This document shows, in pieces, positions 47,206-50,629 of a stretch of 64,000 bases of DNA. The position numbers were made by a program, and so were the translations under genes. Source of the DNA: Bradyrhizobium huanghuaihaiense (GTDB lineage Bacteria > Pseudomonadota > Alphaproteobacteria > Rhizobiales > Xanthobacteraceae). The stretch covers positions 124,001 through 188,000 of the forward strand of contig NZ_VLLA01000003.1 of the NCBI RefSeq assembly GCF_007830635.1, written 5' to 3'. Each line of letters opens with the position of its first letter. The first letter of the stretch is position 1. The notes under the pieces were generated by a model. It had not been told where the DNA came from and searched no databases. It was given only the letters and a program-made list of their open reading frames with translations.

Positions 47206-48072
47206 CTAGCGCTTGGCTCGCTTTTTCGTGACCTTTTTTGGTCCCTTCTTCGAACCTTTTTTGACGGTCTTCTTGGCGGTCTTTTTGACCGTTTTCTTGG
47301 CGGTTTTCTTCGCCGCCTTCTTGGTCCCCTTCACGGCCTTCTTCGCCGTCTTTTTGGTGGTTTTGGCCGATTTGGCGGCCTTTTTGGCTGTTTTCACCGC
47401 CTTTTTGGCCGATTTCTTGCCAGCCTTGGCTTTCTTGGCCGGCGCCGCCTTGGCCGCGCTGCGGGCGTGGGTCTTGGGTTCCACGGCCCCGAGCGCCAGG
47501 AGCTGGCGATGGATGGCGCGGGTGACCTCGTCGATGGCCATCATGCCGTCGATGGTGGAGAGCTTCCGCCGCTCGGAATAGTAGTGAATCAGTGGTTCCG
47601 TCTGGCTGCGGTAGCTCGCGAGGCGCTTGGTCAGGACCTCCGGGGTGTCGTCCACCCGGACCTCCTCGCCGCGCTCGCGCATCTGGGCAACGCGGGTCTC
47701 GACGCGACTCAGCAGCGCACTTTCGTTGACGCGGAGCTCGATCACGGCGTCGAGCTTCAGGTGCTTGTGCTTCAGCAACTCATCCAGCGCTTCCGCCTGC
47801 GGCACGGTGCGCGGGAAGCCGTCGAGGATGAAACCGTTCTTGGCGTCCGGCTGGTCGATGCGGTCGGAGATGATTCCAACCACGACGTCATCAGGGACGA
47901 GGCTGCCGCTGGCCATGATCTCCTTGGCCTTCAGCCCGACCGGCGTTCCCGCCGCAACGGCTGCGCGCAGCATCTCGCCGGTCGAGAGCTGGACGATGCC
48001 ATAGCGCTGCACCAAGAGCTGCGCCTGGGTCCCCTTGCCCGACCCCGGCGGTCCCAGAAGTATAATTCTCAT
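47206..48072 (-). CDS. adk: Adenylate kinase with long Lys/Ala-rich C-terminal tail
   Basis: A 288-residue protein. The adenylate kinase core, about 1-196, has P-loop GPPGSGKGT at 7-15, FPRT at 86-89, and a short LID without zinc cysteines, as in other Alphaproteobacteria. From about 197 the protein continues as a tail of roughly 90 residues made almost only of Lys, Ala, Thr and Val ([12 protein letters not shown]-like repeats) with a net charge of many positives. It resembles histone H1-like bacterial tails. The core makes 2 ADP from ATP and AMP. The ATG overlaps the stop of the SecY-like gene by four bases (ATGA). Confidence 0.95.
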
Positions 48073-49280
48073 CGGCGTACGCCCCCCGGATTGGTGAGCG
48101 ATACGTCGCGCACCTGTGTTTTGATATCAAGAGCGGTGCAAACCACAACCAGCGCCGCACCACCATCGACGACCATACTATAAGGCAGCCCTATCCCGTA
48201 AAGGTCGAACACCTCCGGAATCAACTGCAACGCAGTCAGGTAGACGGCTCCGACGACCGTCGTCAATGACACGACGCGATCGAGATAGTCCGCAGTCGCC
48301 TCGCCGGGCGCGACGCCGGGAATGGTGCCATCATGCTGCGCCAGGGATTTGGCCGTGTCCTCGGGATCGACGACATAGGCGGTGTAGACGAAGGCGAGCA
48401 CGAAGACCGCGATCGACACGAGGATCATGTGCGCCGGCTGCCCCAGCTGGAGATGCCGGTAGGCCGCGGCGACCAAGGGGTGATCGCCGCCCAGGGTGAA
48501 GCCGGCAAAGGCGAGCGGAAGAAAGAAGATCCACGGCGCCACCGTGACCGGAATTAGATACCCGGCGCTGTTGAGCTTGATCGGCAGCACGGCAGCGCGC
48601 GCCGGCAATTGCCGCGCGCCGACATTGAGCGCGCCGAACTCGACCCGAACATTTCGCCGCGCGCCTTCGACGAGAACGATCACGGCGACGGTCACGACCC
48701 AGAGCAAAGCGTGGATGAACACGAGATTGCCCGAGACCGCCCCGCTCCGCACGACATCTGCGATGCCGGCGACGTCTTGCGGCAGGGAGACGAGCATGCC
48801 GACACTCAAGATCACCGCCAGGCCGTTGCCGATGCCGTAGCGGGTGATCTGTTCGCTCAGCCACACCAGCACGAAGACGCCACCAACCATCGAGGCCGTA
48901 GCCGTCGTCACGAACCAGCCGTCCGGATTTCTGACGAGCTCCGGAATGGAAATCAGCGCGGAGGCGATGCCGTAGGCTTGAAAGGCAGCAAGAGCCAGCG
49001 TGAGTCCGAGCGTTGCACGGGCGACCTTGCGTCGGCCGTCCTCGCCCGAGCGCTCAAGCGAATTCAGGCCGCGCCACACCACGGACAGCAACCGGACAAA
49101 GATCGCCGCAGACAGATAGGGAATGAGGCCGAGCGAAAAGAGCGAAAGGCGGACGTTGAAGTTGGGCAACGACGAGAGGCGCGAAACATCCAGCCCCGCG
49201 ATCGGGATCTGGGTGCCGAGCCTGAAAAGGAGCAGCGCGCCAATCGTGAAAGCGATCCGGCGCGCGAGCTCCCTGCTCAT
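48069..49280 (-). CDS. Divergent second SecY-like translocase homologue
   Basis: A 403-residue, about ten-span membrane protein homologous to SecY along its length ([57 protein letters not shown]). It differs from its neighbour SecY in four ways. It is 16 residues shorter between GLD (29-31) and the IPY of TM2, exactly where SecY has the plug helix. A324 replaces the C5-loop Arg (PGVAPGE versus PGIRPGE). The basic C4 loop is changed to [10 protein letters not shown]. The C-terminal YEGLIRK tail is missing. It starts 17 bases after the secY stop with no clear ribosome site and overlaps adk by four bases, so coupling with both is likely. Likely role: a specialised or regulatory SecY-type channel; unproven. 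Confidence 0.9.
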
Positions 49281-49297
49281 CTAGAGCGTCGCCGCAG

Positions 49298-50629
49298 CTA
49301 GCGGCGGCGACCGCGCAGCTTGGACTTGCGGATCAGGCCTTCGTACTGATGGGCCAGCAGATAGCCCTGCACCTGCGCCACCGTGTCCATGGTGACGCTG
49401 ACGACGATCAGCAGCGAGGTACCGCCGAAGTAGAACGGCACCGAGGCATAGGAGATCAGGATCTCCGGGATCAAGCAGACGATGGCGAGATAGATCGCAC
49501 CGAGCACCGTGATGCGCGACAGCACGTAGTCGATATATTCGGCGGTGCGCTCGCCCGGACGGATGCCCGGAATGAAGCCGCCATGCTTCTTCAGATTGTC
49601 GGCGGTCTCGGTCGGGTTGAACACGATCGCGGTGTAGAAGAACGCGAAGAACACGATCAGCGCCAGATACATGATCAGGAACAGCGGACGGCCATGGCCG
49701 AGCTGAGTGGTGATCCACTGGAACCATTCCGGCCCGCTGCCGGCGTTGAAGTTCGCAACCGTGGTCGGCAGCAAGAGCAGCGAGGACGCGAAGATCGGCG
49801 GAATCACGCCCGAGGTGTTGAGCTTGAGCGGCAGATGCGAGGACTGGCCCTCGAACATCTTGTTGCCGACCTGGCGCTTCGGATACTGGATCAAGAGCCG
49901 GCGCTGGGCGCGCTCCATGAACACGATGAAGGCGATCACGGCGACGGCCATGATGATGACGACCAGGATCAGACCGGTCGACATCGCGCCCTGACGGCCG
50001 AGCTCGAGCATGTTGGCGAGCGCCGCGGGCAACTCGGCGACGATGCCGGCCAGAATGATCAGCGAGATGCCGTTGCCGATGCCGCGCGAGGTGATCTGCT
50101 CGCCCAGCCACATCAGGAACATGGTGCCGCCGGTCAGCGTGATCGCCGTGGACAGGCGGAAGAACATGCCGGGGTCGCTGACGACGTTGCCGGCGCCTTC
50201 GAGACCCACCGCGATACCGTAGGACTGGAACGCGGCCAGGATCACGGTCAGGTAGCGGGTGTACTGGTTCAGCAGCTTGCGGCCGGCCTCACCTTCCTTC
50301 TTCAGCGCCTCGAGCTGCGGCGAGACGGTGGTCAGGAGCTGGATGATGATCGAGGCCGAGATGTACGGCATGATGTTCAGCGCGAAGATCGCCATGCGGT
50401 GAATACCGCCGCCGGCGAACATGTTGAACATGCCGAGGATGCCGCCCGCCTGGGACTTGAACACCTGTTCCCAGATGTTGGGATCGATGCCCGGCAGCGG
50501 GATGTAGGTTCCGAGCCGATAAACGAGCAGCGCACCCAGTGTGAACCAGATGCGCTTCTTCAGTTCGTCGGCCTTGGCAAACGCGCCGAAATTGAGATTG
50601 GCTGCCAGTTGTTCCGCTGCAGAGACCAT
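49298..50629 (-). CDS. secY: Preprotein translocase subunit SecY (canonical)
   Basis: A 443-residue ten-span SecY. It has the plug region (about 61-76, AGGILGMFNMFAGGG), the C4 loop with YPKRQVGNK, the C5 loop with R357 in PGIRPGE, and a C-terminal QYEGLIRKSK tail. With SecE and SecG it forms the protein-conducting channel used by SecA and by ribosomes. It occupies the normal place after rplO. Conserved sites are all intact, in contrast to its downstream paralogue. Confidence 0.97.
   Translation of the reverse strand: MVSAAEQLAANLNFGAFAKADELKKRIWFTLGALLVYRLGTYIPLPGIDPNIWEQVFKSQAGGILGMFNMFAGGGIHRMAIFALNIMPYISASIIIQLLTTVSPQLEALKKEGEAGRKLLNQYTRYLTVILAAFQSYGIAVGLEGAGNVVSDPGMFFRLSTAITLTGGTMFLMWLGEQITSRGIGNGISLIILAGIVAELPAALANMLELGRQGAMSTGLILVVIIMAVAVIAFIVFMERAQRRLLIQYPKRQVGNKMFEGQSSHLPLKLNTSGVIPPIFASSLLLLPTTVANFNAGSGPEWFQWITTQLGHGRPLFLIMYLALIVFFAFFYTAIVFNPTETADNLKKHGGFIPGIRPGERTAEYIDYVLSRITVLGAIYLAIVCLIPEILISYASVPFYFGGTSLLIVVSVTMDTVAQVQGYLLAHQYEGLIRKSKLRGRRR

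What the first reader, a model, noticed from the sequence alone, without database searches (positions are those of the whole stretch)
48069..49280. A second SecY-like gene embedded between secY and adk in the ribosomal supercluster
Seen: the ORF is homologous to SecY along its whole length but clearly divergent (for example [15 protein letters not shown] versus EQITSRGIGNGISLI). It starts 17 bases after the secY stop and overlaps adk by four bases. Known: accessory SecY2 proteins of Gram-positives are encoded with SecA2 or glycoprotein-export genes, not in the spc operon. Inference: this copy is co-expressed with the main translocon and with the highly expressed ribosomal genes, so it may assemble with SecE/SecG or with SecY itself instead of serving a dedicated cargo operon.
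Basis: partly seen in the sequence, partly recalled or inferred. Interest (0 to 1): 0.85.

Follow-up and report, generated by a model that had tools for sequence, protein, structure and literature searches.

The report
Plugless second SecY in Bradyrhizobium
Some soil bacteria of the genus Bradyrhizobium carry, right behind their normal protein-export channel gene, an old and altered copy of it that has lost its sealing plug and an arginine needed by the export motor, while most of their relatives seem to have lost this copy again.

Summary
The ORF at 48069-49280 (minus strand) is real: a 403-aa SecY paralogue ("SecYb"), 36% identical to the adjacent SecY, 17 bp behind secY and overlapping adk by 4 bp. 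It does not score as a Gram-positive SecY2. It is an old tandem duplicate from within or at the base of the family, under purifying selection (dN/dS about 0.33; secY 0.05). A full-length copy is in 52 of 265 Bradyrhizobium genomes. Of 114 Bradyrhizobium junctions read, 24 are intact; the others are broken, partly deleted, or gaps ending like the 3' end of secYb, so the genus ancestor probably had it.

In 45 SecYb proteins most of the plug is deleted, the RPG arginine is gone, and TM5, TM7 and TM10 carry near-fixed changes. Two relatives (G126, G1330) lack the arginine but keep the plug; plug loss probably happened twice (p-AU 0.009; 0.048 without the plug columns). SecE and SecG are single-copy.

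In 59 related genomes intact and roughly 275-bp deletion alleles are interleaved on the flanking-gene tree and nearly unlinked to flanking SNPs, which suggests recombination.

Best reading: an ungated, SecA-uncoupled SecY variant with a dispensable membrane role. Function is inferred; slow decay remains open.

The parts
48069..49280 (-). secYb: divergent SecY paralogue, 403 aa
   Evidence: full-length match in 52 of 265 Bradyrhizobium genomes
49298..50629 (-). canonical secY, 443 aa, with whose family lineage secYb groups
47206..48072 (-). adk with Lys/Ala-rich tail, 4-nt overlap with secYb
49281..49297 (-). 17-bp spacer between secY and secYb (in relatives such as G126 a 4-nt overlap instead)
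49149..49193 (-). shortened region where most of the plug segment of SecY is deleted (SecYb residues 30-44)
48531..48545 (-). TM7 replacements: T246, P249, W250 at E. coli I278, S281, S282
48309..48311 (-). A324 in place of the C5-loop arginine (E. coli R357 of the RPG motif)
48082..48114 (-). adk leader inside the 3' end of secYb: hairpin (48093-48114) and GGGGGG Shine-Dalgarno-like run (48082-48087); kept also where secYb is lost

Best explanation
SecYb is an old tandem duplicate of secY that became an ungated variant. After duplication, within or at the base of the family, it lost the arginine of the C5-loop RPG motif that supports SecA-driven export and changed residues of pore and gate helices (TM5, TM7, TM10); later, probably in two lineages, its plug was deleted in part or in most of its length. 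It keeps the SecY fold, conserved gate helices and most of the hydrophobic pore ring, and would have to share the only SecE and SecG of the cell. It most likely works at low level as a SecA-uncoupled, plugless SecYb-E(G) complex that helps membrane-protein insertion or partners the main SecY or YidC. The benefit is conditional: the gene has been lost repeatedly, and in one large group intact and deleted alleles appear to be swapped between species by recombination. Shown: duplication, derived residues, purifying selection, decayed copies. Supported: arginine lost before the plug, presence in the genus ancestor. Indirect: allele exchange. Inferred: SecE/SecG sharing, insertion role, conditional benefit.
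For: Tree: 16 SecYb rows form one clade 100/100, which joins the family's SecY in a 45-row clade, 100/100; pairing the G126 copy with its own SecY is rejected, p-AU 0.005. Residues in 45 SecYb: R357 in 0 of 45, S188A 45, T404G 45, I278T 44, S281P 44, S282W 44, V411C 42 (the window's own SecY has Ser at 411). Plug segment (E. coli 46-73): 11-16 of 28 residues left. G126 and G1330 keep the plug but have Glu at 357. One single plug loss is disfavoured: p-AU 0.009, 0.048 with the plug columns left out. dN/dS: median 0.353 (658 of 780 pairs with dS under 0.8; secY 0.058) and 0.333 (153 pairs; secY 0.053, adk 0.057). Conservation is highest around TM1, TM4-5, TM7, TM8-9 and TM10 and lowest at the plug position. 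SecE and SecG single in 30 of 30. Predicted model: SecY fold, top eight matches by Z are SecA-bound SecY chains, Z 32-35. Literature: an RPG-to-EDP SecY loses SecA activation and translocation, and TM7/TM10 prlA4 changes partly restore it (PMC4826270, passages); plug-deletion SecY is tolerated, and a plugless proto-SecY was proposed to resemble ungated YidC or TatC (PMC8675477, passages).
Against: No expression, interaction or phenotype data. Codon adaptation is low. 90 of 114 Bradyrhizobium junctions lack an intact copy, so it is dispensable. Only the Arg of RPG is lost; P358 stays in 42 and G359 in 45 of 45, while the published variant changed all three. In a double mutant R357E did not stop ribosome-triggered channel opening (PMC3689939). 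The model does not prove an open state: within Thermus the resting chain 5aww (Z 28.5) matches no worse than the peptide-bound 5ch4 (27.4), E. coli translocating 5gae has 28.4, and 5aww is Foldseek's best hit by E-value; the five models ranged from pLDDT 45.7 to 78.2 and the canonical control was poor (66.8). A plugless pore might leak ions. Long branches could distort the trees, and whether SecYb lies inside or beside the family's SecY rests on a weak fork (82/62).
Confidence: 0.42

Rival explanations
1. Slow decay: secYb is a redundant duplicate under relaxed selection, kept mainly because its 3' end carries the hairpin and ribosome-binding site of adk; it is lost whenever a deletion keeps that leader.
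For: Intact in only 24 of 114 Bradyrhizobium junctions; 43 remnants, 46 short gaps, 1 frameshift. The adk leader hairpin is kept in nearly all 116 loci examined, which explains the conserved C-terminus. dN/dS is about six times that of secY. Low codon adaptation.
Against: dN/dS stays well below 1, and the 52 full-length matches in the genus have no internal stops (which cannot see frameshifted copies). SecYb residues S188A, S282W and T404G are fixed or nearly so in 45 proteins that go down to 57% identity. Gaps of 68-121 bp suffice before adk in 46 genomes, so 1.2 kb is not needed for it.
Confidence: 0.27
2. Regulator or decoy: SecYb binds the limited SecE (and SecG) or pairs with SecY in a dimer, lowering or tuning the number of active translocons, and does not itself handle substrates.
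For: Single SecE and SecG; E18, L19 and R22 kept in 45 of 45 while the RPG arginine is lost; same operon as secY.
Against: A pure decoy would not need conserved gate and pore helices; low predicted translation makes titration of SecE weak.
Confidence: 0.15
3. Target-variant allele: SecYb offers an altered channel when the main SecY is attacked by an outside agent (a toxin that enters through SecY or an inhibitor), which would explain patchy presence and exchange between species.
For: Interleaved intact and deletion alleles, nearly unlinked to flanking SNPs, as expected for a conditionally useful locus. Import of some toxins through SecY is recalled by me; the search did not find that paper.
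Against: The gap between secY and adk is no longer than secYb itself, so no toxin, immunity or resistance gene travels with it there. A SecYb without R357 is unlikely to replace SecY in export.
Confidence: 0.08

Closest known systems
Canonical SecY of the Sec translocon (PF00344; NCBIfam TIGR00967)
   Same: SecY fold, position in the spc operon, conserved gate helices, common ancestry with the family's SecY
   Different: Most of the plug and the RPG arginine lost, TM5/TM7/TM10 changes, short C-tail, faster evolution; scores 216.6 bits against the TIGR00967 cut-off of 253.6
Accessory SecY2 of Gram-positive bacteria (TIGR02920, NF009082)
   Same: A second, divergent SecY beside the normal one
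   Different: Scores far under both cut-offs (118.7 of 249.6; 134.9 of 353), as the canonical SecY also does; groups with its own family's SecY; lies between secY and adk
Laboratory plug-deletion and prlA SecY mutants
   Same: Loss of plug residues and changes in TM7/TM10, which are said to unlock the channel (PMC4826270 and PMC8675477, passages)
   Different: Natural, evolutionarily kept, and combined with loss of the RPG arginine; the exact substitutions differ
YidC/Oxa1 insertases
   Same: Proposed way of working: ungated lateral insertion, as argued for a plugless proto-SecY (PMC8675477)
   Different: SecYb is a full SecY, not a YidC; similarity of function is inference

Membership tests
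SecY family (PF00344) | Match to the family model over its length, above the curated cut-off | tested here: met
   219.3 bits, cut-off 32.2, positions 1-305 of 306
SecY family (PF00344) | SecY fold | tested here: met
   AlphaFold2 model, Z 35.2 to 8ya3_Y, 390 residues aligned, rmsd 4.6
Canonical SecY equivalog (TIGR00967) | Score above the NCBIfam cut-off | tested here: not met
   216.6 against 253.6 bits
Canonical SecY equivalog (TIGR00967) | Plug helix TM2a | tested here: not met
   11-16 of 28 residues left in E. coli 46-73 in 45 of 45 SecYb; 28 of 28 in G126; also present in G1330
Canonical SecY equivalog (TIGR00967) | C5 RPG motif with Arg357 | tested here: not met
   Arg in 0 of 45 SecYb; Ala 40, Met 2, Thr 1, Pro 1, Val 1; P358 42 of 45 and G359 45 of 45 kept
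Canonical SecY equivalog (TIGR00967) | Hydrophobic pore ring | tested here: inconclusive
   positions 82, 86, 187, 191, 408 stay Ile/Leu/Val apart from one Met at 191; I278 becomes Thr in 44 of 45; ring positions recalled
Canonical SecY equivalog (TIGR00967) | Binds SecE and SecG | not testable with these tools
   only indirect: one SecE and one SecG gene in 30 of 30 genomes
Accessory SecY2 (TIGR02920, NF009082) | Score above cut-off | tested here: not met
   118.7 against 249.6; 134.9 against 353
Accessory SecY2 (TIGR02920, NF009082) | Encoded with secA2 / glycoprotein export genes | tested here: not met
   neighbours are secY and adk in the intact loci mapped; a second, shorter SecA frame occurs elsewhere in 4 of 15 genomes with and 1 of 15 without SecYb
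Accessory SecY2 (TIGR02920, NF009082) | Phylogenetic grouping with Gram-positive SecY2 | tested here: inconclusive
   no Gram-positive SecY2 was in the tree; SecYb joins its own family's SecY at 100/100

The most novel reading that the evidence does not exclude
SecYb is a natural, ungated SecY: a plugless, SecA-uncoupled channel that acts as a SecE-sharing membrane-protein insertase, with surviving intermediates of the path (arginine lost first, plug later and twice). It is kept as a presence/absence polymorphism that moves between Bradyrhizobium species by recombination inside the ribosomal operon.
Probability: 0.27. Interest if true: 0.85.

Novelty: new variant of a known kind. Interest (0 to 1): 0.68.

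Why it matters
The plug and the RPG loop are regarded as core parts of the SecY channel. A natural SecY lineage that dropped the arginine and most of the plug, with intermediates still alive in sister genomes, makes the question of what gating is for, and whether an ungated SecY can still insert proteins as proposed for its ancestor, testable by genetics in soil bacteria. It also shows a presence/absence polymorphism inside one of the most conserved operons of bacteria.

Tried and rejected
Gram-positive SecY2: rejected on scores and neighbours; no SecY2 was in the tree. Transfer from a distant lineage: not supported, SecYb joins the family's SecY. Recent duplicate: rejected (36% identity, long branches). 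Strain-specific decaying copy: rejected (52 of 265). A partner set of extra SecE/SecG: none in 30 genomes. A partner SecA2: a second, shorter SecA_DEAD frame (666-675 aa) is in 4 of 15 genomes with and 1 of 15 without SecYb, too few to link; not pursued (PMC4452313 describes secondary SecA_DEAD proteins linked to type I secretion; title, abstract start and passages seen; Bradyrhizobium not mentioned). Wider searches at strict thresholds: order 3 of 397, all Bradyrhizobium; phylum 2 of 398, Bradyrhizobium; distant members could be missed. Class with PF00344, 193 genomes: 4 others had two matches; two look like one gene in two pieces (G816, G842), one is a weak 20.9-bit match under the cut-off (G740), one a very divergent copy (G788). 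Two other second SecYs in the family are not SecYb (G280, G287).

Codon-model omega from IQ-TREE printed no value, so only Nei-Gojobori dN/dS is quoted. The canonical SecY model was too poor to serve as a control. 'The SecYb model is in an open state' was dropped as a result: match scores are mixed and confounded by species. 'Conserved C-terminus SLTNPGG as a protein feature' was dropped: the same DNA is kept where the gene is lost. Charge changes at E. coli R340 and K364 were dropped as SecYb marks, since the window's own SecY has Thr and Glu there. A covariation test of the adk hairpin is uninformative because its pairs hardly vary.

Literature: no paper describing this gene appeared in the listings of searches (open PMC library only; one returned nothing). 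Papers seen as passages: PMC3689939, PMC8082313, PMC4826270, PMC4452313, PMC8675477; all others as listings. Pore-ring positions, TM boundaries, prl sites other than those, and the CDI-toxin/SecY link are recalled.

Full report
WHAT IS THERE. The ORF at 48069-49280 (-) is a 403-aa SecY homologue in full reading frame, 17 bp after secY and sharing 4 bp with adk. It is 36% identical to the neighbouring SecY and matches PF00344 end to end. The window lies in a 9.2-Mb genome (G000); all 43 loci found in named genome contigs are titled Bradyrhizobium. Forty-one of these encode the paralogue at 57-95% identity (L117 appears to be the frameshifted copy also seen as L035); the other two (L120, L121) have a broken copy beside secY. 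I call the gene secYb.

DISTRIBUTION. PF00344 over 117 Bradyrhizobium genomes: 113 have SecY and 23 have an intact second copy directly behind it. With a SecYb profile at a strict threshold, 52 of the 265 held Bradyrhizobium genomes have a full-length match, none with internal stops; this threshold passes over copies broken by frameshift or deletion. In the family sample (248 genomes, 17 of them Bradyrhizobium) two genomes outside the genus have it, G126 and G246, again between secY and adk. None outside the genus was found in order (3 of 397) or phylum (2 of 398) samples at a stricter cut, which distant members might miss.

ORIGIN. In a maximum-likelihood tree of 64 proteins the 16 SecYb rows are one clade (100/100) that joins the family's SecY in a 45-row clade (100/100), with other Alphaproteobacteria and E. 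coli outside. Whether it lies inside or beside the family's SecY rests on a weak fork (82/62). Pairing the G126 copy with its own SecY is rejected (p-AU 0.005). In 55 of 59 other loci examined in family and class the secY-adk distance is -4 to +25 bp; the four exceptions are two SecYb carriers, one Bradyrhizobium, and L060 with 81 bp. The ancestral arrangement is therefore most likely a direct secY-adk overlap, and secYb arose by tandem duplication between them.

LOSS. I read the secY-adk junction of 114 Bradyrhizobium genomes: 24 intact, 1 frameshifted, 43 with a remnant (two assigned by gap length only), 46 with a 68-121 bp gap. None has the bare 4-bp overlap. Even the short gaps end in a GGTGyGCG...CGCTCACC hairpin and GGGGGG run like the 3' end of secYb. 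So the genus ancestor probably had secYb, and its last codons double as the leader of adk. That the leader predates secYb is not excluded.

TWO ALLELES. In a 59-genome group, 20 genomes are intact, 1 is frameshifted and 38 carry a roughly 275-bp allele. The 38 share one deletion and one derived sequence, including a TTGGCG-N18-TATGAT promoter-like site: the pattern, written after seeing the sequences and allowing variants, is in 34 of 38 and in 0 of 26 intact loci. On the secY+adk tree intact and short alleles are interleaved: over the whole 116-row tree 18 changes of the intact label, at least 13 forced by well-supported branches. Allele state is associated mainly with the last 100 bp of secY (mean r2 0.098, max 0.78); elsewhere mean r2 per 100 bp is 0.008-0.048, chance 0.018. 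Repeated allele exchange by homologous recombination fits best; a persistent ancestral polymorphism is the alternative. The flanking tree itself may be affected by recombination.

SELECTION. dN/dS of SecYb is 0.16-0.44 in the 25 closest pairs, median 0.353 over 658 of 780 pairs, against 0.058 for secY of the same genomes. Among 153 pairs of the 59-genome group: 0.333, secY 0.053, adk 0.057. This is constraint, about six times weaker than on secY. Codon adaptation is low (0.442; secY 0.743, adk 0.526, four ordinary neighbours 0.44-0.65), so high protein levels are unlikely despite the operon.

ANATOMY (E. coli numbering, 45 SecYb). Plug segment 46-73: 11-16 of 28 residues left. R357 of the RPG motif: 0 of 45; P358 42 and G359 45 kept. 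S188A 45, T404G 45, I278T 44, S281P 44, S282W 44, V411C 42 (Ser in the window's SecY). The C-terminal tail is cut. E18, L19, R22, Q131, N185 and K268 stay in 45 of 45. Pore-ring positions 82, 86, 187, 191 and 408 stay Ile, Leu or Val, apart from one Met. Conservation is highest around TM1, TM4-5, TM7, TM8-9 and TM10 and lowest at the former plug (helix limits recalled).

ORDER OF EVENTS. G126 (another genus) and G1330 (Bradyrhizobium, L260) keep a full plug but have Glu at 357, Ala at 188, Trp at 282 and Cys at 411. G246 has a shorter plug deletion (18 of 28 left) and Glu at 357. The tree puts L260 with the genus and G246 outside; one single plug loss is disfavoured, p-AU 0.009 with and 0.048 without the plug columns, a test named after seeing the data. 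So arginine and gate residues changed first, and the plug went afterwards, probably twice.

STRUCTURE. AlphaFold2 with 29 sequences gives a SecY fold (best of five models pLDDT 78.2, worst 45.7; pTM 0.73). The eight best solved chains by Z are SecA-bound SecY (32.2-35.2). Resting Thermus SecY has 28.5, peptide-bound Thermus 27.4 and E. coli translocating 28.4, and resting 5aww is Foldseek's best hit by E-value. Species and state are mixed, so this does not decide open against closed. A canonical control of equal quality was not obtained.

PARTNERS. One SecE and one SecG in 30 of 30 genomes, with and without SecYb. SecYb, if it assembles, must share them.

MECHANISM. Published work seen as passages: an RPG-to-EDP SecY loses SecA activation and translocation, TM7/TM10 prlA4 changes partly restore it, and the authors say the defect is not simply a lost contact (PMC4826270); the plug seals the resting pore, and R357E in a double mutant did not stop ribosome-triggered opening (PMC3689939); a plugless, ungated proto-SecY has been proposed to resemble YidC or TatC (PMC8675477). 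SecYb combines loss of the RPG arginine, changes in the helices where unlocking mutations lie, and loss of most of the plug, while gate and pore helices stay under constraint. I therefore favour an ungated, SecA-uncoupled auxiliary channel or insertase that shares SecE and has a conditional benefit. Decay with a kept adk leader, a SecE-titrating regulator, and a target-variant allele are the rivals.

NOVELTY. No paper on this gene appeared in eight searches of open PMC full text. It is a member of the SecY family, but it fails the canonical and SecY2 equivalog cut-offs and lacks two features of canonical SecY: a new variant of a known kind.

Noticed in passing
window 48082-48114 and 115 other loci: A hairpin plus GGGGGG run directly before adk is kept in nearly all 116 loci, with or without secYb (seven of eight stem pairs form in 114-116 loci, the eighth in 107); it explains the conserved SecYb C-terminus and may control adk translation.
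   Followed up: partly
L042, L047, L199, L219 and 34 other short-allele loci, secY-adk gap: The 275-bp allele has GC-rich hairpins after the secY stop (14 inspected; compensatory changes seen by eye only) and a TTGGCG-N18-TATGAT promoter-like site before adk (34 of 38), as if adk had gained its own promoter.
   Followed up: partly
L243, secY-adk gap: An insertion of about 100 bp containing a palindrome-like repeat sits inside the short allele.
   Followed up: no
G280:C1:3476140-3477150 (L128, L134): A second, nearly canonical SecY (90% identical to the window's) without rplO, adk or rpsM in the 9 kb read around it, in another genus of the family.
   Followed up: no
G788:C103:16140-17171 (L173): A very divergent second SecY (428 aa, branch length over 5) in an alphaproteobacterial genome with 5% contamination; could be foreign.
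   Followed up: no
G011, G036, G056, G091, G094: A second, shorter SecA_DEAD frame (666-675 aa) in 5 of 30 Bradyrhizobium genomes.
   Followed up: no
window 47206-47500: Adk carries a C-terminal extension rich in Lys and Ala (NCBIfam PRK13808).
   Followed up: no
L037 (G074:C38:1-837): A chimeric SecY in a fragmentary contig: most of it about 50-57% identical to SecY, the last 40 residues typical Bradyrhizobium; looks like an assembly join.
   Followed up: partly
L060 (G254), secY-adk gap: An 81-bp gap between secY and adk in another genus of the family, ending in a G-rich run; possibly the scar of another lost secYb.
   Followed up: no
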